A stretch of DNA of 64,000 nucleotides, taken from NCBI GenBank assembly GCA_022449545.1, contig JAKUPN010000005.1, positions 67,897 through 131,896 on the forward strand, written 5' to 3'. The stretch's first letter is position 1; each line of letters starts with the position of its first letter. Positions 44,691 through 60,760 of the stretch are shown here, piece by piece. This stretch comes from Alphaproteobacteria bacterium. Its GTDB lineage: Bacteria; Pseudomonadota; Alphaproteobacteria; UBA6615. Under the pieces are notes generated by a model, which saw only the letters and a program-made list of their open reading frames with translations, ran no database searches and was not told the origin of the DNA. A program made the position numbers and the translations under genes.

Positions 44691-45350
44691 ATGTCTAACT
44701 TTATTATAGGACGGTTATTTGGGTGGAACGACTTCTCAAATGATGGAGAAGAGGTTTGGGTAGTCCATATTGAAGATCCAACATTCACCATGCGGGTAAT
44801 ACATCGCCCAACAGAGGAAATCCCAACTGGAGAAATGAGTGACATTTATTTTCCTCTTAGAAATGATGATGACTTGGCATTAGGAAATCTAATATTTCTT
44901 GAGCCCCGACCCTCTGATCCTAGAGTAATAGCTGGACTGGTTAATGAAGCAATAAATTCCATAGAGGATCCAGATGTTGCAAATAGATTAAATCTTACTC
45001 AAGATAATATGAATCCCTCATCGGCAGATATTCACATAAATGATGTACCATTAGGTTTTATAATTGGCGTTATGCATGATGCAGAGATGGAAATAAATGA
45101 CGATGGACCTTGGATAATTAATTTGGCCCCTCCCCCATTTGCAATGAGACTGTGTGATTTGAATAATGAAGATTTAGATCAGGAAGATATTTGGGCGTCA
45201 TTAGGAGAAGGAAATGTTTTTGGCCATCTCACATGGCTTACAAACCTAGCATGCAGTAGAGATGATTTATTAAGTCGATCAGAAACAGCGGCCAACTATT
45301 TACTTGATATCGCTAACAGTATGATGCCTAATTTAATTCCTACAGAATAA
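44691..45350 (+). CDS. Unrecognised acidic protein with two homologous halves
   Basis: I do not recognise this 219-residue protein. It is acidic, has no signal peptide or membrane segment and no catalytic motif I know. Two halves resemble each other: FIIG at 4-7 and 123-126, DG followed by W at 18-23 and 138-141, and FTMR at 32-35 against FAMR at 150-153, at a near-constant offset of 118-119. A duplicated small domain is therefore likely. It sits between the MDR and cupin genes in the catabolic block; the cupin gene follows by 59 bases on the same strand. Confidence 0.75.
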   Translation: MSNFIIGRLFGWNDFSNDGEEVWVVHIEDPTFTMRVIHRPTEEIPTGEMSDIYFPLRNDDDLALGNLIFLEPRPSDPRVIAGLVNEAINSIEDPDVANRLNLTQDNMNPSSADIHINDVPLGFIIGVMHDAEMEINDDGPWIINLAPPPFAMRLCDLNNEDLDQEDIWASLGEGNVFGHLTWLTNLACSRDDLLSRSETAANYLLDIANSMMPNLIPTE

Positions 45351-46829: not shown

Positions 46830-47912
46830 TTATCTAGCCTCCCTTTCAACAATCATTGTTTCGTCAACCAAATGTCCATCTTCTATAATTAAGTCATTAT
46901 CTAACACCACACTGCAATCACGCATCGGAACATCATAATGACCCTTGGTGTTTCTATTGCCCCCTCCCTGAGTGTTTGGCCCTGTTGAGAATAAGAAATT
47001 TCCAGGAAATGCCCTAGCAGCAGCGTGTGATCTCTCTGGCGCATCACCATTTAATGCTAAATTATACCAACGAGCCTGAGGGTTCAGCCCCCAACCTAAA
47101 TGAGACACGGCGTACGGATCTAAGTCATCATCAGAAAGTTTGTTATCATCAAGCCAATCAGTCATCAACTTGGCGTCAAATCCACCATCTATTCTACGAA
47201 TAAAACCATCCTGTATATCTAATCGTACTTCGTCTTGTATGTAACGACAAAAAGGAAGCACCACAATATCACCTGGAGCAAATACCACAGTCCCGGTAGC
47301 AGAAAGTTCATTTGGGAATGTATGGGTATGGCCAACTCCCCAATGATCAAAATGCCCGGGTTCATCAGAGTATCCCCACTGGCTCATAACCGGATAGTCT
47401 CCACAATCATATGTTAAATCGGTTCCAGAACTACTAGTCACTCTAACCTTTGATGTTTCTGACAAACGTTTGTGCGCGTGTAGAACCGCTTCTTTGAGAC
47501 CTTTTGGTGCCAAAAGCGTCTCTAACTCGTCTGGAGCATCGATGATCATCAAAAACCTAGTACCAGTATCCATTACTTCCTTGAGCCAACTCGTGAACAA
47601 GGGAATATGAAGTGCCACCACTATATCTGCTGATATCAATGCCTCTTTTATGCCTTTGGTTTCACCTATCGTATCAACACCCACTTTAGTCCATGAAGGG
47701 ACCATATTAACTTTTAACTCATAAGCATTTGCCCCTAACTCATCTGCAGCAGCAAAGGCAGCTTGAACATATTCAGCTCGAGTTGTTATATCACTCATTA
47801 GAGCTACGGTTTCACCTTCAGAAACTTTCGACATAATAAACTGTTTTAAAAACAGCCCGGTGAGTTTAGCCGAATTAATTTCCTGATGTCGAAGAGCTGC
47901 TGGAATGCGCAT
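46830..47912 (-). CDS. NicX-like 2,5-dihydroxypyridine 5,6-dioxygenase / M29-like protein
   Basis: 360 residues related to NicX, a non-heme iron ring-cleaving dioxygenase that shares ancestry with M29-type aminopeptidases and not with classical extradiol enzymes. Candidate iron ligands are H271 (SHLGWGLNP), H325 and D327 (GHYDVP), matching in order and spacing the His, His, Asp ligands reported for Pseudomonas putida NicX. GHFDHWG at 186-192 is another conserved stretch. Ring cleavage of a hydroxylated N-heterocycle is the best guess. An aminopeptidase-like role is the alternative. The gene runs directly into the formamidase-like hydrolase gene. Confidence 0.78.
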   Translation of the reverse strand: MRIPAALRHQEINSAKLTGLFLKQFIMSKVSEGETVALMSDITTRAEYVQAAFAAADELGANAYELKVNMVPSWTKVGVDTIGETKGIKEALISADIVVALHIPLFTSWLKEVMDTGTRFLMIIDAPDELETLLAPKGLKEAVLHAHKRLSETSKVRVTSSSGTDLTYDCGDYPVMSQWGYSDEPGHFDHWGVGHTHTFPNELSATGTVVFAPGDIVVLPFCRYIQDEVRLDIQDGFIRRIDGGFDAKLMTDWLDDNKLSDDDLDPYAVSHLGWGLNPQARWYNLALNGDAPERSHAAARAFPGNFLFSTGPNTQGGGNRNTKGHYDVPMRDCSVVLDNDLIIEDGHLVDETMIVEREAR

Positions 47913-48094
47913 TTTTATCTCCTAGCTGACTGAATATCTATGAGCGCAATGATAGCAGTAATTTTCACATTGCCTAATACACACTTGTCATAAAAAATAT
48001 ATATTCTCAATAATACCTGACAACAAAACACTGTTGTGCTTTGTTAACAGAGTAAATCATACACATAATAATGCATAGCCGGAGAGATAGCACC

Positions 48095-49333
48095 ATGATG
48101 AGAGCTTTTACTGAACAAAAAATGAAGCGTTGGGCTGAACAGCGATGGATCCTGGACGCAATTATATCCAGTGTTGGAATGGAGTGGGACCAACCGAGAT
48201 TAGGTTACACGATGTTTCCCTGCGGACCAGATGCCGTGGGAGATTTTCGAACTGTAGGTATGCGCACTAAAAAGTTTAACGATATGCATAGAGAATTTGC
48301 TGCTGCCGCAAGCAGACGTCAAGCAAAAGCCATCTCTTTCGAAGAACAGGATAGATTAGTGTCTGCACGCGAAAGTTATTTTATAGCCTCGCTTCTCTAT
48401 TCAGCCGCAAGATGGCCAATCTTTGAAGCTAACGACTTACACATCGAATACAATCAAAGAATGAATGATTGCTATGATAAATATATACAATATGCTCCTA
48501 GACCAATCGAACGTGTAGAAATTCCATTTGGAGATGGAGTGTTACCCGGCTATCTAGCGTTACCACATGAACCAAAAAATGGAGAGAAATTCCCATGTGC
48601 CATTGGCATCGACGGCATGGATGGTTCTAAGGAAATCATGTGTTCTATGTATGGGGATAAAATGCTAGAGAGAGGAATGGCCTCCTTTGTATATGATGGC
48701 CCCGGACAAGGCGAATGCCCAGTGAAAGGGGTGTACGTAACCAAAGATAACCATATGGACGCAGCACAAGCTGTGTACGACTGGCTCATACAACACCCAG
48801 CAATCGATAAAGACCGCTTGGTTATATTCGGTCTAAGTTTTGGATCGTTTTTTGGATTACAAGCGGCTGCACAATTAGGTGACAAAGTACTTGGCACCGC
48901 AGTGACTTTTGTATGCCATGAGCCTGGCTGCTACACTATTTTTAATATGGCGGCTCCATCATTTAAACTTCGTTTTATGTTCATGAGTGATTATGATGAC
49001 GAAGATAAATTTGATGAATTCATAAGTGAATTTTCACTAGATCCTATACTAAGAGACATAAAAAGCCCCGTTCTAATACAAGCAGGACAAGATGAAGAGC
49101 TTAGTCCTATCGAGTGTACAGATGACGTCGTTAGTAAACTTAGTGTTAATAAAAAGCTCGTCTATTATGAAGGTGAAAGACATGCAATAGGGGGAGGATC
49201 CGCTGCATATTTTGGAGAAAATTGGTATTCGATGCTAGCCGACTGGTGCCAAGATAGAGTTAACGGAAAAGAGGCCCCGAATGAAAAAGTCTTAATTAAC
49301 ACAATGGGACAACAAGAAGTTACACCCTATTAA
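48095..49333 (+). CDS. Alpha/beta hydrolase resembling 2,6-dihydroxypseudooxynicotine hydrolase
   Basis: 412 residues with a helical N-terminal cap domain of about 140 residues and an alpha/beta hydrolase core. This layout is typical of the FrsA/DHPON-hydrolase group, whose known member cleaves a C-C bond in nicotine breakdown. The nucleophile is Ser248 in GLSFGSFFG; the acid is in AGQDEELSP and the base in GERHAIGG. The ATG at 48095 is chosen because GGAGAG lies ten bases before it; an upstream ATG at 48071 has none. It is divergent from the NicX-like gene. Confidence 0.8.
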   Translation: MMRAFTEQKMKRWAEQRWILDAIISSVGMEWDQPRLGYTMFPCGPDAVGDFRTVGMRTKKFNDMHREFAAAASRRQAKAISFEEQDRLVSARESYFIASLLYSAARWPIFEANDLHIEYNQRMNDCYDKYIQYAPRPIERVEIPFGDGVLPGYLALPHEPKNGEKFPCAIGIDGMDGSKEIMCSMYGDKMLERGMASFVYDGPGQGECPVKGVYVTKDNHMDAAQAVYDWLIQHPAIDKDRLVIFGLSFGSFFGLQAAAQLGDKVLGTAVTFVCHEPGCYTIFNMAAPSFKLRFMFMSDYDDEDKFDEFISEFSLDPILRDIKSPVLIQAGQDEELSPIECTDDVVSKLSVNKKLVYYEGERHAIGGGSAAYFGENWYSMLADWCQDRVNGKEAPNEKVLINTMGQQEVTPY

Positions 49334-49350
49334 CTATATTTATTCATTGT

Positions 49351-49973
49351 CTATCTCGGCTGACCATCCTCGAACTCACGTTCGAGGATTTGGCCGAGTT
49401 TAGAATAAAAGTGTCCATTTAGACGGCCAATTGGTAAAAGTTTCTCCATGTTTATGTACCCATTAACCATACATGAAGGATCAACATGAAAGTATACTAC
49501 CTCTCCAATTACTAATGGGTGTTTGTTCGGACCAAACTCGAAAACATTATGTAGTTTACATTCAAAGTGTATAGGAACTTCACCTACTCTGGGTGATTTC
49601 ACTTTTAATGCAGCTAATTGAGTTAAACCAGTGGCGTCAAACTCACTCTCTTTTTCAGGAATGGCGTTTCCAGTGTCTACCATTTCTTGCCAAACAGGTT
49701 CTGTAACTACATTAAAGCAAAAATCACCGGTCTCTTTAATATTCTTTAAAGTATGTTTTTCAGATCCATCTGGATTTCGTGCTATAGTTAGAGAAATCAT
49801 AGGAGGCACAACACAAACAACGGTAAAAAAATAAATGGAGCCAAATTTGTATTACCATTCTTATCAATAGTTGAGGCCCATCCAATCGGCCTCGGCACTA
49901 CAGAGCCTGTTAGAAGTCTATAAACTTCTCGACGATCTATCTCAGAAGGATTAAATTCTAAATAGTCTGGCAT
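49351..49973 (-). pseudogene. Flavin reductase-like protein with a frameshift
   Basis: FMN-binding split-barrel family (flavin reductase domain). The first 48 or so codons, from an ATG at 49973 with AAGGAG upstream, read MPDYLEFNPSEIDRREVYRL and on through VVPRPIGWAST to NLAPF. The frame then breaks at a run of seven A (49825-49831 on the plus strand). From there the family sequence resumes one frame over as FFTVVCVVPPMISLTI and runs to 49351. One inserted base restores a normal protein of about 207 residues. A real inactivating mutation, an assembly error at a homopolymer, or slippage are all possible. Confidence 0.85.
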
Positions 49974-50148
49974 TGATTTTTGTCTCCTTAAAGAGAAAAA
50001 TGTTATTCTAGAGTTTGGAGAGTGTCTTTTAAATATTAATTAGATGCTTTCATTGCATATGTAAATTTAATTAAGAGGGCGTAGGTAATTCTCGACTAAA
50101 AAATAATAAGAAGCGAGATAAATATAAATCTTTATAAAGGGGGAACCA

Positions 50149-51171: not shown

Positions 51172-52080
51172 ATGAGAGCTGTTTTTTCATTGAACCCTTG
51201 GGAATCTAAACGTCTCATAGGAAGAGCTGTTTCTAAACTTCCAGAAGTGGTATATGCTTTATCTCACGCACAGTTAGTCATAGCCCATGGATCAACAAAC
51301 GTATTTGTAGCTGAAGAGGTGCTTGGTTATTGTCCTGAACGAGATAAATATGCTTCGGGGCAAGTAATAAATGGCACTTTATGCCAAACAGAATCAAGTG
51401 AGAAACCCCCAATACTTAGATTAGTTAAAGGCAAACCTGTTCCTCCTGTCCCAACAATGGATGAAACCATGGCTGGGTGGGATGATAAATGCGTTTTTAT
51501 CAAGGGCGCTAACGCCGTTGATCCAGAATTCAATGCGGCCATCTTTAATGCACATCCAGGGGCAGGAACAATAGGCTTCGCCTTCGGAAAAATTTGTGGA
51601 ATGGGTATTCCACTAATTGTACCCGTTGGCCTTGAAAAATTGATACCTTCTGTGAAATTGGCTTCAACACAACTTGGACATGCACGCGTCGATTATTTTA
51701 ATGGTCAGAAAATTGGTATGTTACCCTTAATAAATGCAAAGGTTATTACTGAAATCCAAGCATTTAAAATACTATTTGGTCTAGATGCAGTCCATGTCGG
51801 TGGCGGAGGTGTTTCTGGATCTGAAGGTACTATTGTCTTATCCGTCGAAGGCGACAAACAATCTGTGAATGAATCTATAGAGGAGATCAATACAATTAAA
51901 GGCGAACCTCCTTTAAATCTTAAAAAGGCTCTATGTGAAACCTGTATTCCCTCTACCCCGGCCCTCAGAACCGCCGATGGATCTCAGGTCATTGAACAAA
52001 CAGAAAAAACTTGTATTTATAGCGGAACTCTAGAAACCGACTTGCCTGATTGGTTTAAAAAGAGAGAAGTAACTTACTGA
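51172..52080 (+). CDS. Conserved protein of unknown family, tandem copy 1
   Basis: I do not recognise this 302-residue protein. It begins MRAVFSLNPWESKRLIGRAV, lacks a signal peptide and membrane helices, and has glycine-rich runs (HPGAGTIGFAFGK and HVGGGGVSGSEG) that could form a ligand or nucleotide site. The C-terminal 60 residues carry CETC and a later CIYSG, a possible metal site. A second, clearly homologous gene begins 39 bases downstream. Position beside hydrolases and a ring-cleaving enzyme suggests a metabolic role; no function is assigned. Confidence 0.85.
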   Translation: MRAVFSLNPWESKRLIGRAVSKLPEVVYALSHAQLVIAHGSTNVFVAEEVLGYCPERDKYASGQVINGTLCQTESSEKPPILRLVKGKPVPPVPTMDETMAGWDDKCVFIKGANAVDPEFNAAIFNAHPGAGTIGFAFGKICGMGIPLIVPVGLEKLIPSVKLASTQLGHARVDYFNGQKIGMLPLINAKVITEIQAFKILFGLDAVHVGGGGVSGSEGTIVLSVEGDKQSVNESIEEINTIKGEPPLNLKKALCETCIPSTPALRTADGSQVIEQTEKTCIYSGTLETDLPDWFKKREVTY

Positions 52081-52119
52081 TTTTTTTAAGTATATTAATT
52101 TTATAAAATAGGATAATTC

Positions 52120-53043
52120 ATGAGAGCCGTATTTTCAGTTACTCCTTGGGAATCAAAAAGATTAATTGGACGTGCTGTTGCACATCTGCCTGAAGTTCAA
52201 TATGCACTTGAACAGTCACAAATAATTATTGCCCATGGATCCACAAATGTTTATGTGGCCGAAGAAGTACTCGGATATTGCCCTGAAAGAGATCGGTACG
52301 TCTCTGGCCAAGTCATCAATGGTACTTTATGTCAAACTCAACCAGAGGAAAAACCAGCCATACTGAGACTGGTTAAGGGTAATCCTGTTCCTCCTGTCCC
52401 AACAATGGATGAAACTATGGCCGGGTGGGATGATACCTGTTTGTTTATAAAGGGCGCTAATGCCGTTGATCCAGATTTCAATGCGGCTATCTTTAATGCA
52501 CATCCAGGAGCAGGAACAATAGGATTTGCCTTCGGAAAAATTTGTGGAATGGGTATTCCACTAATTGTACCCGTTGGCCTTGAAAAGTTGATACCTTCTG
52601 TGAAATCCGCTTGCACAGAATTAGGCCATGCGAGAGTCGACTATTTCTATGGAACAAAAATAGGAATGCTCCCATTAATTAACGCTAAAGTAATAACTGA
52701 GATACAGGCATTTGAAATTTTATTTAACTTACCTGCTGTTCATGTTGGAGGCGGCGGAGTATCAGGATCAGAAGGATCAGTAGTGCTCGCTGTCGAAGGA
52801 GATAAAAGTGACGTTGAAATGGCAATAAATTACATGTCAGACATCAAAGGTGAACCAGCTTTAAAGTTGAAAAAAAGAATTTGCTCCACCTGCTATGCTC
52901 CCCCTCCTGCTTTTACTTCTGGAACAGCAACTCATAAAACGAACGAGACAATCGATCATCAAAAATTAGCCCTAGAGCAAAAACAGTGTATCTTTTCTGG
53001 AATTGAAGAAAATGACTTACCCCCATGGTTTATCAAGCGTTAA
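52120..53043 (+). CDS. Conserved protein of unknown family, tandem copy 2
   Basis: 307 residues homologous to the preceding gene over the full length, beginning MRAVFSVTPWESKRLIGRAV. Shared features include HGSTNVYVAEEVLGYCPERD, SGQVINGTLCQT, the glycine runs, a C-terminal CSTC and CIFSG. The linker before the last cysteine is longer and more divergent than in copy 1. The middle third is nearly identical to copy 1 at the DNA level, while the ends differ at many silent sites. Probably co-transcribed with copy 1; the two may form a heteromer, which is inference. Confidence 0.85.
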   Translation: MRAVFSVTPWESKRLIGRAVAHLPEVQYALEQSQIIIAHGSTNVYVAEEVLGYCPERDRYVSGQVINGTLCQTQPEEKPAILRLVKGNPVPPVPTMDETMAGWDDTCLFIKGANAVDPDFNAAIFNAHPGAGTIGFAFGKICGMGIPLIVPVGLEKLIPSVKSACTELGHARVDYFYGTKIGMLPLINAKVITEIQAFEILFNLPAVHVGGGGVSGSEGSVVLAVEGDKSDVEMAINYMSDIKGEPALKLKKRICSTCYAPPPAFTSGTATHKTNETIDHQKLALEQKQCIFSGIEENDLPPWFIKR

Positions 53044-57634: not shown

Positions 57635-59527
57635 ATGTGCCAGAGTTACTGCATGACAAAAACCACCATCACTATCTGTCTAACATTCTCTTTACTTATT
57701 GTAAGCATAATAGAAGGCTTTTCAAATGATGAACTCAGCGAAGCCTTAAACTCATACAACAGTGGCGATTACATAACCACTCTAAAGATTTTAGAGAATC
57801 AAACCCAAAACGTTGCTACAGATGATTTGAACCAATACGGATCATTCAGTGAAGAAAAAGAAGGTATGTCTTCAACGACTTTATCAATTCGTAACGCAAA
57901 CATAATTCTAGGCGTTATGTATAAATATGGAAAAGGTATCAAAAAAGATAAAAAGAAAGCCTATAAGTTCTTGCAGCTTGGAGGCATTAAGCATCAAGTA
58001 ATAACGAGGATGGAAACAACTTATATTAGTCCAGAAGAGCTAATTTACAAAAAAGTTACTGTGCAAGATAATTTAGCTCAGATCAAAAACTTTGATGAAA
58101 ATCATGTGTTTGACTTATCAAGTAGTAATATAAAACAAGAAAATACTATCTCTCGTATAACCACAGATGTACCGATAATTAAGCAAAAAACCTTTATAGA
58201 TAAAGATAAATTATCTGTTGAGCTTAAAAAAGAGCAACTCACAGTAAAAGAGTCAGAAACTTTATTAAATGAACAAAAACTACTACTTCAATTGAAATTA
58301 AAGGAAAAAGAACTCAATGAACTAAAATTGAGACGTCAAAAAATTAAAAAAATTCATGAACTTAAAAGGCAACTGCGATTAAGGGAAAAACAGATAGCCG
58401 AGCTCGAAGGAAAACCCCTAATAATAGAAAAAAACTTTGAAGCAAAACAGCAAATACAACTAAAGGAAAAACAGCTCGTTGAATTAAATTTAAAGTCTCC
58501 TAAACTTAAAAATAATTCTCTAAAACCGAATAAAGTATCACCGTCCACCGTTTATGACTCTGATTTAAAATCTATAACCGACAAATTAACTGAAAAGTTA
58601 CCCAAAGGTTCCTCAATAGCGTTATTACCAATTAATCAAAAAAAAGCCAAACTTCCGGCTAACGTGGCATACTCATTATCATCACGTATTACAAACAGTC
58701 TCGCAAACTCGGGGGTAATAAACAGTATTAAAGTAATAGATCGCGAAAACTTAAAAAATTTAATGCGTGAACAAGAAGAGTTTTTGGGGGTTGATGATTT
58801 TTCAAAACTTGTTGAAAAGGCTGGAGCAGACGTACTCGTGTCCGTACAAATATCAAGAATTAACAAAGATTCAATCCTAATTTCACTTCGTGGCACAGGA
58901 ATTAAGGGTGATATAGCCGGTAAGGTATTAGGAGCAACATCTGAAATTTCATATAATGTCCCCCAGCGCTTTTCAGTTTCTATTTCGGGCGTTTTTAACA
59001 ACCGAGGGGAAAGAAAAACTGCTTATGAAGACTCTCTTTCTAGTGGAGTAACAAAATTTGAGGAAATCTCCTTAGCACTGAGTAAAAGTATTTACGCAGT
59101 AGATTTTTATGTTAAAGCTAATTACACCTTTAAATTTTCTCAACAAAAAACTAAGGAAAGCAGAGAAAATGAACAGGGCGCAAAAATAATGGGTTCTTTT
59201 AGCAAAATGATGGGGGGTTTTGGAGGCAAAGCTAGCCCAATGGCAGCTATAATGGGATCAGTTGCTGCAGGTGGAGCCTCATCAAAACATTTAGAAAAGA
59301 CTGTTTTAAATATTGGTGTTAGTTCTGAGTTAGTAGACAAAATAAATGGCAGAGTTTTTAAAGATACAAGGGATGCTGTAATCAACCTTCCTGGAGATTC
59401 TGACTTCGATGCAAAAAGCATAGCGTTAAAAGCGAACATCAGAGAACTAGTGAAAGAATCTGGTTTCTTCTTAGCGGCTAGAGCGCTCGGAAAAAAGACA
59501 GAGAGATCAGAAAAGACTTTAGATTAG
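57635..59527 (+). CDS. CsgG/FlgO-like envelope protein with Sel1 and coiled-coil regions
   Basis: 630 residues, or 624 from the ATG at 57653; neither has a clear ribosome site. A signal peptide is followed by a single Sel1-like repeat (ILGVMYKYGKGIKKDKKKAYKF, about 95-116) and a long Lys/Glu/Leu-rich coiled coil (about 190-290). The C-terminal 315 residues resemble the CsgG/FlgO group: IALLPINQ, SLSSRITNSLA, KVIDRENLKNLMREQ and GADVLVSVQISRI. These families form or assist outer-membrane export and assembly structures. The C-terminal part is duplicated in the next gene. Confidence 0.72.
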   Translation: MCQSYCMTKTTITICLTFSLLIVSIIEGFSNDELSEALNSYNSGDYITTLKILENQTQNVATDDLNQYGSFSEEKEGMSSTTLSIRNANIILGVMYKYGKGIKKDKKKAYKFLQLGGIKHQVITRMETTYISPEELIYKKVTVQDNLAQIKNFDENHVFDLSSSNIKQENTISRITTDVPIIKQKTFIDKDKLSVELKKEQLTVKESETLLNEQKLLLQLKLKEKELNELKLRRQKIKKIHELKRQLRLREKQIAELEGKPLIIEKNFEAKQQIQLKEKQLVELNLKSPKLKNNSLKPNKVSPSTVYDSDLKSITDKLTEKLPKGSSIALLPINQKKAKLPANVAYSLSSRITNSLANSGVINSIKVIDRENLKNLMREQEEFLGVDDFSKLVEKAGADVLVSVQISRINKDSILISLRGTGIKGDIAGKVLGATSEISYNVPQRFSVSISGVFNNRGERKTAYEDSLSSGVTKFEEISLALSKSIYAVDFYVKANYTFKFSQQKTKESRENEQGAKIMGSFSKMMGGFGGKASPMAAIMGSVAAGGASSKHLEKTVLNIGVSSELVDKINGRVFKDTRDAVINLPGDSDFDAKSIALKANIRELVKESGFFLAARALGKKTERSEKTLD

Positions 59528-59571
59528 AATACAATAAAAACAGCAAGATTCATTTAGTTATCCTCATCACG

Positions 59572-59600
59572 TTGACCTAGTCCAGCATAGTGATCATAGT
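59572..59600 (+). promoter_or_regulatory. Possible promoter for the second CsgG/FlgO-like gene
   Basis: TTGACC (59572-59577) and CATAGT (59595-59600) are 17 bases apart, near the sigma-70 pattern. The stretch CATAGTGAT is repeated in tandem at 59586-59603, overlapping the -10. The distance to the ATG is about 120 bases. It is weak evidence by sequence alone. Confidence 0.3.
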
Positions 59601-59719
59601 GATAATCATTAATACTTGGTTTTCTTATTTTGTTACAGTTTTATGGGTAATAAAACCGCAGCAAAAAAAATAATTTAACGCTTACCTTTATTATTACATC
59701 ATAATTAAGGAGCATTTAA

Positions 59720-60760
59720 ATGATTTATAGAAACGTTATTCTGGCAGTTTTATGTTTCACAGTTTTGTTTTTGTCACCATCCATAATCTACGCGTCCGGT
59801 TTAAATACAATAAGCGCTCAACTAATCAAAAAATTGCCTGAGGGTAGTTCAATAGCATTGTTACCAATTAATCAAAAAGAATCTAAAATTCCGGCCAATG
59901 TTGCCAACTCATTATCGTCACGTATTACAAACAGTCTCGCAAATAAGGGTTCCGCTAACAATATCAAAGTAATAGATCGTGAAAACTTAAAGAATTTAAT
60001 GCGTGAACAAGAGGAATTTTTGGGGGTTGATGATTTTTCAAAACTTGTTGAAAAGGCTGGAGCAGACATCCTCGTTTCTGTTCAACTATCGAGAATAAAC
60101 AAAGAATCTATTCGAATTTCACTTCGTGGCACAGGAATTAAGGGTGATATAGCCGGTAAGGTATTAGGAGCAACATCTGAAATTTCATACGACGTACCCG
60201 AACGATATTCGGCATTGATCTCGGGTGTTTTTAACAACAAAGGCAAACGAAAAACAGCTTACGAAGACTCTCTCTCCAGTGGAATAACAAAATTTGAGGA
60301 GATATCTTTGACACAGAGCAAAAGTATCTATGCTGTAGATTTCTATGTTAAAGCCAATTACACCTTTAAATTTTCTCAACAAAAAACCAAGGAAAGCAGA
60401 GAAAATGAACAGGGCGCAAAAATAATGGGTTCTTTTAGCAAAATGATGGGCTCAATGGGCGGCAAGGCTAACCCAATGGCTGAAATGATGAAATCAGCTA
60501 CAGGTGATGGTGACTCAAAACATCTAGAAAAAACAGTTCTCAATCTGAGTGTTAACTCTGAGTTGGTAGACAAGATCAACGATAGAATTTTAAAAGACAC
60601 AAGGGATACTGTTATTAATCTTCCTGGCGATTCTGACCGTGATGCGAAAAGCATAGCATTAAAATCAGCCATCAGAGAACTAATGAAAGAGTCCGGTTCG
60701 TTCTTAGCGGCAAAGGCCCTAGGTAAATCAACAGAAAGTTCAGAAAAGGATTTAGATTAA
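59720..60760 (+). CDS. CsgG/FlgO-like envelope protein, short paralogue
   Basis: 346 residues with a signal peptide (about 1-26) and then directly the CsgG/FlgO-like region shared with the preceding gene. It has no Sel1 repeat or coiled coil. Several blocks are identical in DNA to the first copy (for example 60115-60189 against 58879-58953). AAGGAG lies seven bases before the start. The two proteins could form one envelope complex, with the long one adding a coiled-coil extension; this is inference. The lipoprotein gene follows by 27 bases. Confidence 0.78.
   Translation: MIYRNVILAVLCFTVLFLSPSIIYASGLNTISAQLIKKLPEGSSIALLPINQKESKIPANVANSLSSRITNSLANKGSANNIKVIDRENLKNLMREQEEFLGVDDFSKLVEKAGADILVSVQLSRINKESIRISLRGTGIKGDIAGKVLGATSEISYDVPERYSALISGVFNNKGKRKTAYEDSLSSGITKFEEISLTQSKSIYAVDFYVKANYTFKFSQQKTKESRENEQGAKIMGSFSKMMGSMGGKANPMAEMMKSATGDGDSKHLEKTVLNLSVNSELVDKINDRILKDTRDTVINLPGDSDRDAKSIALKSAIRELMKESGSFLAAKALGKSTESSEKDLD

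What the first reader, a model, noticed from the sequence alone, without database searches (positions are those of the whole stretch)
51172..53043. Tandem pair of an unrecognised conserved protein family
Two adjacent full-length homologues of about 300 residues share an unusual N-terminus (MRAVFS..PWESKRLIGRAV), two glycine-rich loops and a C-terminal CxxC plus a third cysteine. I cannot match them to any enzyme family. Retention of two copies in a catabolic block suggests a two-subunit enzyme or binding complex.
Basis: partly seen in the sequence, partly recalled or inferred. Interest (0 to 1): 0.65.

Follow-up and report, generated by a model that had tools for sequence, protein, structure and literature searches.

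The report
Paired uncharacterised sugar-isomerase-fold-like proteins
Two neighbouring genes in a marine alphaproteobacterium encode sister versions of a protein family that no library recognises, probably a distant relative of the sugar-isomerase / lactate-utilisation (LUD) fold, and almost every related genome keeps one of each version even where the two genes lie far apart, which hints that the two work together.

Summary
Two intact ORFs (302 and 307 aa, 74% identical) match nothing in Pfam, NCBIfam or PDB sequences. They are one family: about 250-aa single-copy relatives (33-41% identical) in 33 of 48 genomes of a second Pseudomonadota class, and paired copies with an added cysteine tail in one marine alphaproteobacterial family (4 genera).

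[quoted passage not shown] Best fold neighbours are eIF2B and MTR-1-P / ribose-1,5-bisphosphate isomerases; best profile neighbour is the LUD domain, but LUD membership tests fail.

The proposed link to the NicX-like and DHPON-hydrolase-like genes does not hold: the gene order is shared only in close genera, and each side occurs without the other.

What does hold is the pairing. Tails come in two types (C-x2-C-IP-S/T-TP and C-x2-C-F/Y-APPPAF), and 13 of 17 carrier genomes hold one of each, tandem in two genera and unlinked in two. In the window, gene conversion has homogenised the middle of the genes while the tails stay distinct. My reading: two co-required subunits of an ISOCOT-like ligand-binding or isomerase-type protein. 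Substrate unknown; heteromer inferred.

The parts
51172..52080 (+). Copy A (302 aa), type I tail: predicted ISOCOT-like core (residues 1-243) plus cysteine tail C255-x2-C258-IPSTPA...C281-IYSG
52120..53043 (+). Copy B (307 aa), type II tail: same core plus tail C255-x2-C258-YAPPPAFTSG...C290-IFSG
51442..51711 (+). Gene-converted stretch of copy A (core nt 271-540); the matching stretch of copy B is 52390-52659. 34 of 42 four-fold sites are identical here against 18 of 57 outside; longest identical run 59 nt
51502..51639 (+). In copy A: motif KGANAVDPEFN...HPGAGTIG...LIVPVGLEK (residues 111-156), the stretch that aligns with the LUD core motif (ITGANFLIAETG...IVVASIEK)
51934..52077 (+). Copy A C-terminal tail with CxxC and third cysteine, predicted disordered; absent in the distant single-copy relatives
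52882..53040 (+). Copy B C-terminal tail with CxxC and third cysteine

Best explanation
The two genes encode paralogous subunits of one soluble protein of an uncharacterised family with an ISOCOT-like (NagB/RpiA/CoA-transferase-like) core, nearest in sequence to the LUD domain. The core has a glycine-rich G-S-T-N loop (residues 40-43), an invariant K111-G-x-N114-A-x-D117 motif, K156 and E194. In ISOCOT proteins the corresponding loops bind a small phosphorylated, carboxylated or CoA-linked ligand, and an acidic residue acts as base or nucleophile; by analogy E194 or D117 would do so here. In the marine alphaproteobacteria each subunit has a flexible C-terminal tail with CxxC plus a third cysteine, likely a metal site or redox-active thiol site, and the ancestral gene split into a type I and a type II version that are kept together. 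Most likely they form a hetero-oligomer or two obligate partners on one small-molecule conversion, as paired ISOCOT subunits do (CoA-transferase alpha/beta, eIF2B alpha/beta/delta). Shown: the family, its conservation, the two tail types, their co-retention, gene conversion. Moderately supported: the fold. Inferred: ligand class, catalysis, metal binding, heteromer. The link to pyridine-type catabolism in the window looks like local gene order, not function.
For: Core model pTM 0.84, mean pLDDT 80. Leaving aside aspartate aminotransferase hits with rmsd around 12 A, nearly all top PDB fold matches are eIF2B subunits, MTR-1-P isomerase (4ldq) and ribose-1,5-bisphosphate isomerase, with Foldseek probability up to 0.97-0.98. 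Profile comparison with LutB sequences from related genomes scored 37.7, against a maximum of 23.9 in 200 column-shuffled versions and 28.5 in 42 unrelated real families; the aligned stretch is the LUD core motif. LUD is itself an ISOCOT member (PMC3924224). Pairing: of 17 carrier genomes in the GTDB family, 13 hold exactly one type I and one type II copy (11 read in full; G408's second copy was fetched; G411's second copy is cut by its contig end but reads as type II). The others are two with a single copy found, one with two type II, and one with type I plus a truncated remnant. The pair is tandem in genera g1 and g219 and unlinked in g216 and g218. Gene conversion in the window genome: four-fold identity 34/42 inside codons 91-180 against 18/57 outside, p=1.7e-6, and higher than between orthologues of sister species.
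Against: No fold match reaches E<=0.001, and TM-scores are only 0.2-0.42. The LUD signal falls to 28, about the level of the best unrelated family, when a more diverse LUD set is used. No signal against MtnA or RpiA profiles. RpiA's catalytic aspartates are K111 and N114 here, going by my reading of the motif. The stretch for the gene-conversion test was chosen after looking at the sliding plot. The core tree groups copy A with copy B rather than with the unlinked type I copies, so the claim that all type I copies are orthologous rests on tail similarity and on gene conversion. Absence of the second copy in some genomes may be incompleteness or real. No complex was modelled and no ligand evidence exists.
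Confidence: 0.4

Rival explanations
1. The two copies are a gene duplication with dosage or specialisation value only: two independent homo-oligomeric ISOCOT-like enzymes acting on similar substrates, with no physical complex.
For: Distant relatives function as a single copy (33 of 48 genomes). In g216 and g218 the two copies lie in different neighbourhoods, one with GMC oxidoreductase, amidohydrolase and an OsmC-domain protein, the other with HIBADH, pirin and PdxA, and have diverged to about 52-57% identity.
Against: Nearly all genomes hold exactly one copy of each tail type; continued gene conversion suggests the cores are kept compatible.
Confidence: 0.35
2. A two-component part of a pyridine/nicotinate-type catabolic system with the adjacent NicX-like dioxygenase and DHPON-hydrolase-like enzyme.
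For: The window block is catabolic: the NicX-like protein matches 2,5-dihydroxypyridine 5,6-dioxygenase 7cn3 at E=2.7e-66, with an FrsA/DHPON-hydrolase-family hydrolase, flavin reductase, FAA hydrolase, VOC, cupin and esterases. The gene order is shared within genus g1 and partly with g219.
Against: DHPON-hydrolase-like orthologue without the family (G407), the family without it (G402), both unlinked (G404). In g219 six kilobases of unrelated genes separate them. The distant relatives have no such genes nearby. Distant members of the same hydrolase family are present in about ten copies per genome, so proximity is weak evidence.
Confidence: 0.1
3. A true LUD-domain protein, i.e. a LutC-like partner in lactate or other 2-hydroxyacid oxidation, with the cysteine tail carrying a cluster.
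For: Motif and profile similarity to LutB's LUD domain; LutB carries an iron-sulphur region beside its LUD domain (PMC3924224).
Against: PF02589 does not match any of 30 members even at E=10; the A-E-T-G motif is missing; a normal LUD pair lies elsewhere in the genome; three cysteines do not make a ferredoxin-type motif.
Confidence: 0.1

Closest known systems
LUD domain family (Pfam PF02589; LutB/LutC, DUF162)
   Same: Same order of motifs in about 60 residues (x-G-A-N ... I-V-x-x-x-x-E-K-I/L-V/I-P); similar size to LutC; C-terminal cysteines as in LutB (different pattern)
   Different: No Pfam match, no A-E-T-G motif, CxxC...C tail instead of a 4Fe-4S ferredoxin domain, not in a lut operon
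eIF2B alpha/beta/delta, MTR-1-P isomerase (MtnA), ribose-1,5-bisphosphate isomerase (Pfam PF01008)
   Same: Best fold matches of the predicted core; paired or multiple paralogous subunits occur in eIF2B
   Different: No sequence or profile similarity to MtnA; TM-score at most about 0.42
Ribose-5-phosphate isomerase A (RpiA, PF06026)
   Same: Loop G-S-T and motif x-G-A-x-x-x-D in the same order (D-G-A-D-E-x-D in RpiA, K-G-A-N-A-V-D here), seen by eye
   Different: Catalytic aspartate positions are Lys and Asn; K-G-G-G-G-A-L-x-R-E-K motif absent; no profile signal
2,5-dihydroxypyridine 5,6-dioxygenase NicX (neighbour gene, PDB 7cn3)
   Same: The neighbour at 46830-47912 is a clear relative
   Different: Not related to the finding; association limited to local gene order

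Membership tests
ISOCOT / NagB-RpiA-CoA-transferase-like superfamily | Shared alpha/beta fold | tested here: inconclusive
   Top fold matches are ISOCOT proteins but E>=0.01 and TMq<=0.42
ISOCOT / NagB-RpiA-CoA-transferase-like superfamily | Profile-level sequence relation to at least one member family | tested here: inconclusive
   LutB set: 37.7 against shuffle maximum 23.9 and unrelated maximum 28.5; diverse LUD set: 28.2-28.5; MtnA and RpiA none
LUD domain (PF02589) | Score above Pfam cut-off | tested here: not met
   No match in 30 members at E<=10
LUD domain (PF02589) | A-E-T-G motif after T-G-A-N | tested here: not met
   KGANAVDPEFNAAIF in place of TGANFLIAETGSTVI
LUD domain (PF02589) | lut operon context | tested here: not met
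   PF02589 matches of the genome lie on contig C8, not by these genes
IF-2B / MTR-1-P isomerase (PF01008) | Score above Pfam cut-off | tested here: not met
   hhalign within noise
RpiA (PF06026) | Catalytic D-G-A-D and K-G-G-G-G-A...E-K | tested here: not met
   K-G-A-N at the position aligned by eye; second motif absent
Heteromeric two-subunit system | One copy of each type per genome, independent of linkage | tested here: met
   13 of 17 carrier genomes; exceptions listed
Heteromeric two-subunit system | Physical interaction of the two types | not testable with these tools
   Only monomer prediction available
NicX/DHPON-hydrolase catabolic system | Fixed neighbourhood and co-occurrence | tested here: not met

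The most novel reading that the evidence does not exclude
A previously undescribed enzyme family: an obligate type I/type II heteromer of ISOCOT-like subunits with cysteine tails that bind a metal or cluster at the subunit interface and carry out a new reaction on a small carboxylated or phosphorylated metabolite, related to a single-copy, near-core protein of another Pseudomonadota class.
Probability: 0.2. Interest if true: 0.6.

Novelty: new variant of a known kind. Interest (0 to 1): 0.38.

Why it matters
If right, it adds an unannotated family to a superfamily known for turning one fold into many activities, widely conserved in one bacterial class (probably the magnetotactic cocci, unverified) and paired in a family of marine alphaproteobacteria. 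The co-retained tail types give a direct experimental handle: co-express, test for a heteromer and a metal, and look for the ligand.

Tried and rejected
Pfam and NCBIfam scans of both proteins and of all 30 members of a diverse alignment gave only noise (weak NIL-domain hits at E 0.009-0.15 in a few members, below cut-off). PDB sequence search gave nothing with one protein or with the profile. Plasmids and viral contigs have no relative. The first structure model with the tail was noisier than the core model. The viral fold library gave nothing. MtnA and RpiA profiles were within noise. The first LutB/LutC test was invalid because wrong ORFs had been picked; it was repeated. Conserved neighbours of the distant relatives were sought for a clue to function; only a CheV-like gene recurs, in 4 of 12 loci, with no constant operon. 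Distribution outside Pseudomonadota could not be searched.

Full report
The finding is real. Two ORFs at 51172-52080 and 52120-53043 (+ strand) encode proteins of 302 and 307 residues that are 74% identical. The genome (2.25 Mb in 47 contigs) has no further copy. Neither protein matches Pfam, NCBIfam or PDB sequences, and neither does any member of a 30-sequence alignment that reaches down to 32-38% identity.

Relatives. A scan of one genome per species found close relatives (50-93% identity) only in uncultured marine alphaproteobacteria. Among 385 sampled genomes of the window's class, the 5 with a match all belong to the window's own GTDB family. Within that family 17 of 24 genomes, from four genera, carry it. 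In the wider phylum a sample of 398 genomes gave 35 with the gene. All the hits outside the window genome were 33-41% identical, mostly about 250 aa long and without the cysteine tail. A dedicated search of the class of one of them found the gene in 33 of 48 genomes, and in 23 of 27 good-quality ones, as a single copy (one assembly splits it in two pieces), so there it is close to a core gene. That class is probably Magnetococcia, by recollection of the size of one complete genome; this is not verified.

Fold. AlphaFold2 on the tail-less core gave pTM 0.84. Apart from poorly superposed aspartate aminotransferases, nearly all top PDB fold matches are eIF2B subunits, MTR-1-P isomerase and ribose-1,5-bisphosphate isomerase, with Foldseek probability up to 0.97-0.98 but E-values of 0.01 or more and TM-scores of at most 0.42. 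Independently, K-G-A-N-A-V-D ... P-V-G-L-E-K-L-I-P-S resembles the LUD core motif, and a profile comparison confirmed that register. With LutB sequences the score was 37.7 (P 2.7e-4), against a maximum of 23.9 in 200 column shuffles and 28.5 in 42 unrelated families. With a more diverse LUD set the score fell to about 28. LUD is an ISOCOT family (PMC3924224). I take ISOCOT-like fold as likely (about 0.6) and special kinship to LUD as possible (about 0.35). LUD membership tests fail: no Pfam match, no A-E-T-G, no lut operon.

Pairing. The tails fall into two types: type I, C-x2-C-[IV]-P-[ST]-TP ... C-[IL]-Y, and type II, C-x2-C-[FY]-APPPAF(TSG) ... C-I-[FY], with small variations. The window's copy A is type I and copy B is type II. 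Thirteen of the 17 carrier genomes have exactly one of each: 11 read in full, G408 with its second copy fetched separately, and G411, whose second copy is cut by its contig end but reads as type II. The exceptions are G413 and G418 (only type I found), G416 (two type II found) and G410 (type I plus a truncated type-I-like remnant). All four exceptions lie in genera where the genes are unlinked, and three of the four assemblies are in 140 or more contigs. The genes are adjacent in g1 and g219 but on different contigs or far apart in g216 and g218 (for example G404, 145 kb and 899 kb on one contig). So the co-retention does not depend on linkage, which is better evidence for a joint function than adjacency alone.

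Gene conversion. In the window genome the middle of A and B (core nt 271-540) has 34 of 42 identical four-fold sites against 18 of 57 outside (p=1.7e-6, stretch chosen after inspection). This exceeds the orthologue comparison with the sister species in the same stretch (19 of 44) and includes a 59-nt identical run. The tails and N-terminal parts are not homogenised. This can explain why the core tree places A beside B and not beside the unlinked type I copies.

Neighbourhood. The NicX-like identity of 46830-47912 is confirmed (7cn3, E=2.7e-66). The DHPON-hydrolase-like protein at 48071-49333 is a member of the FrsA / AntI / DHPON-hydrolase group, with AntI scoring above DHPON hydrolase. The block also holds a flavin reductase, two HSL-type esterases, cupin, alcohol dehydrogenase, FAA hydrolase and a VOC protein. 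Its order next to the pair is shared with the two sister species, and in g219 with six kilobases of other genes inserted. The DHPON-hydrolase-like orthologue occurs without the family (G407), the family without it (G402), and both unlinked (G404). In g216 and g218 the type II gene lies by GMC oxidoreductase, amidohydrolase, an OsmC-domain protein and an amidase, and the type I gene by HIBADH, pirin and PdxA. In the other class the neighbours vary. I therefore reject a fixed NicX-linked system.

Mechanism. Residues invariant across both classes are K111, N114, D117, K156 and E194, with the G-x-T loop at 40-42 nearly so. In ISOCOT proteins the equivalent loops hold the phosphate or CoA part of a ligand and a nearby acid does the chemistry; carrying this over is inference by analogy from general knowledge of the superfamily. 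The cysteine tail, found only in the paired alphaproteobacterial members, is predicted disordered alone and may bind a metal or act through thiols; this is untested. The heteromer is inferred from co-retention of the two types and from paired subunits elsewhere in the superfamily.

Verdict: an authentic unannotated family, probably a new branch of a known fold, with a retained pair of sister subunits. The catabolic linkage is incidental as far as can be tested here.

Noticed in passing
window 49351-49974 (- strand): The flavin-reductase-like gene reads as 152 aa with a frame change in a T-rich run; the sister species has an intact 207-aa gene, 99% identical over the shared part. A sequencing or assembly error or a recent frameshift.
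   Followed up: partly
L193 561-1055 (G410:C230, - strand): A truncated third copy of the family (C-terminal half plus a type-I-like tail CATCVPSTP) between a quinone-oxidoreductase-type ADH and an alpha/beta hydrolase, apparently a remnant of a further subfamily.
   Followed up: partly
window 48071-49333 and genome-wide: The genome holds 13 matches to the FrsA/DHPON-hydrolase-like protein (one orthologue and 12 more distant hits), a large number of this hydrolase group for a 2.25 Mb genome; related genomes hold up to 14.
   Followed up: no
window 44691-45350: A 219-aa protein with no Pfam or NCBIfam match, conserved in the sister species (92% and 59% identical) at the same place.
   Followed up: no
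window 57635-60760: Two adjacent genes share a long near-identical region (SSRITNSLAN...), a second tandem paralogue pair, apparently exported proteins.
   Followed up: no
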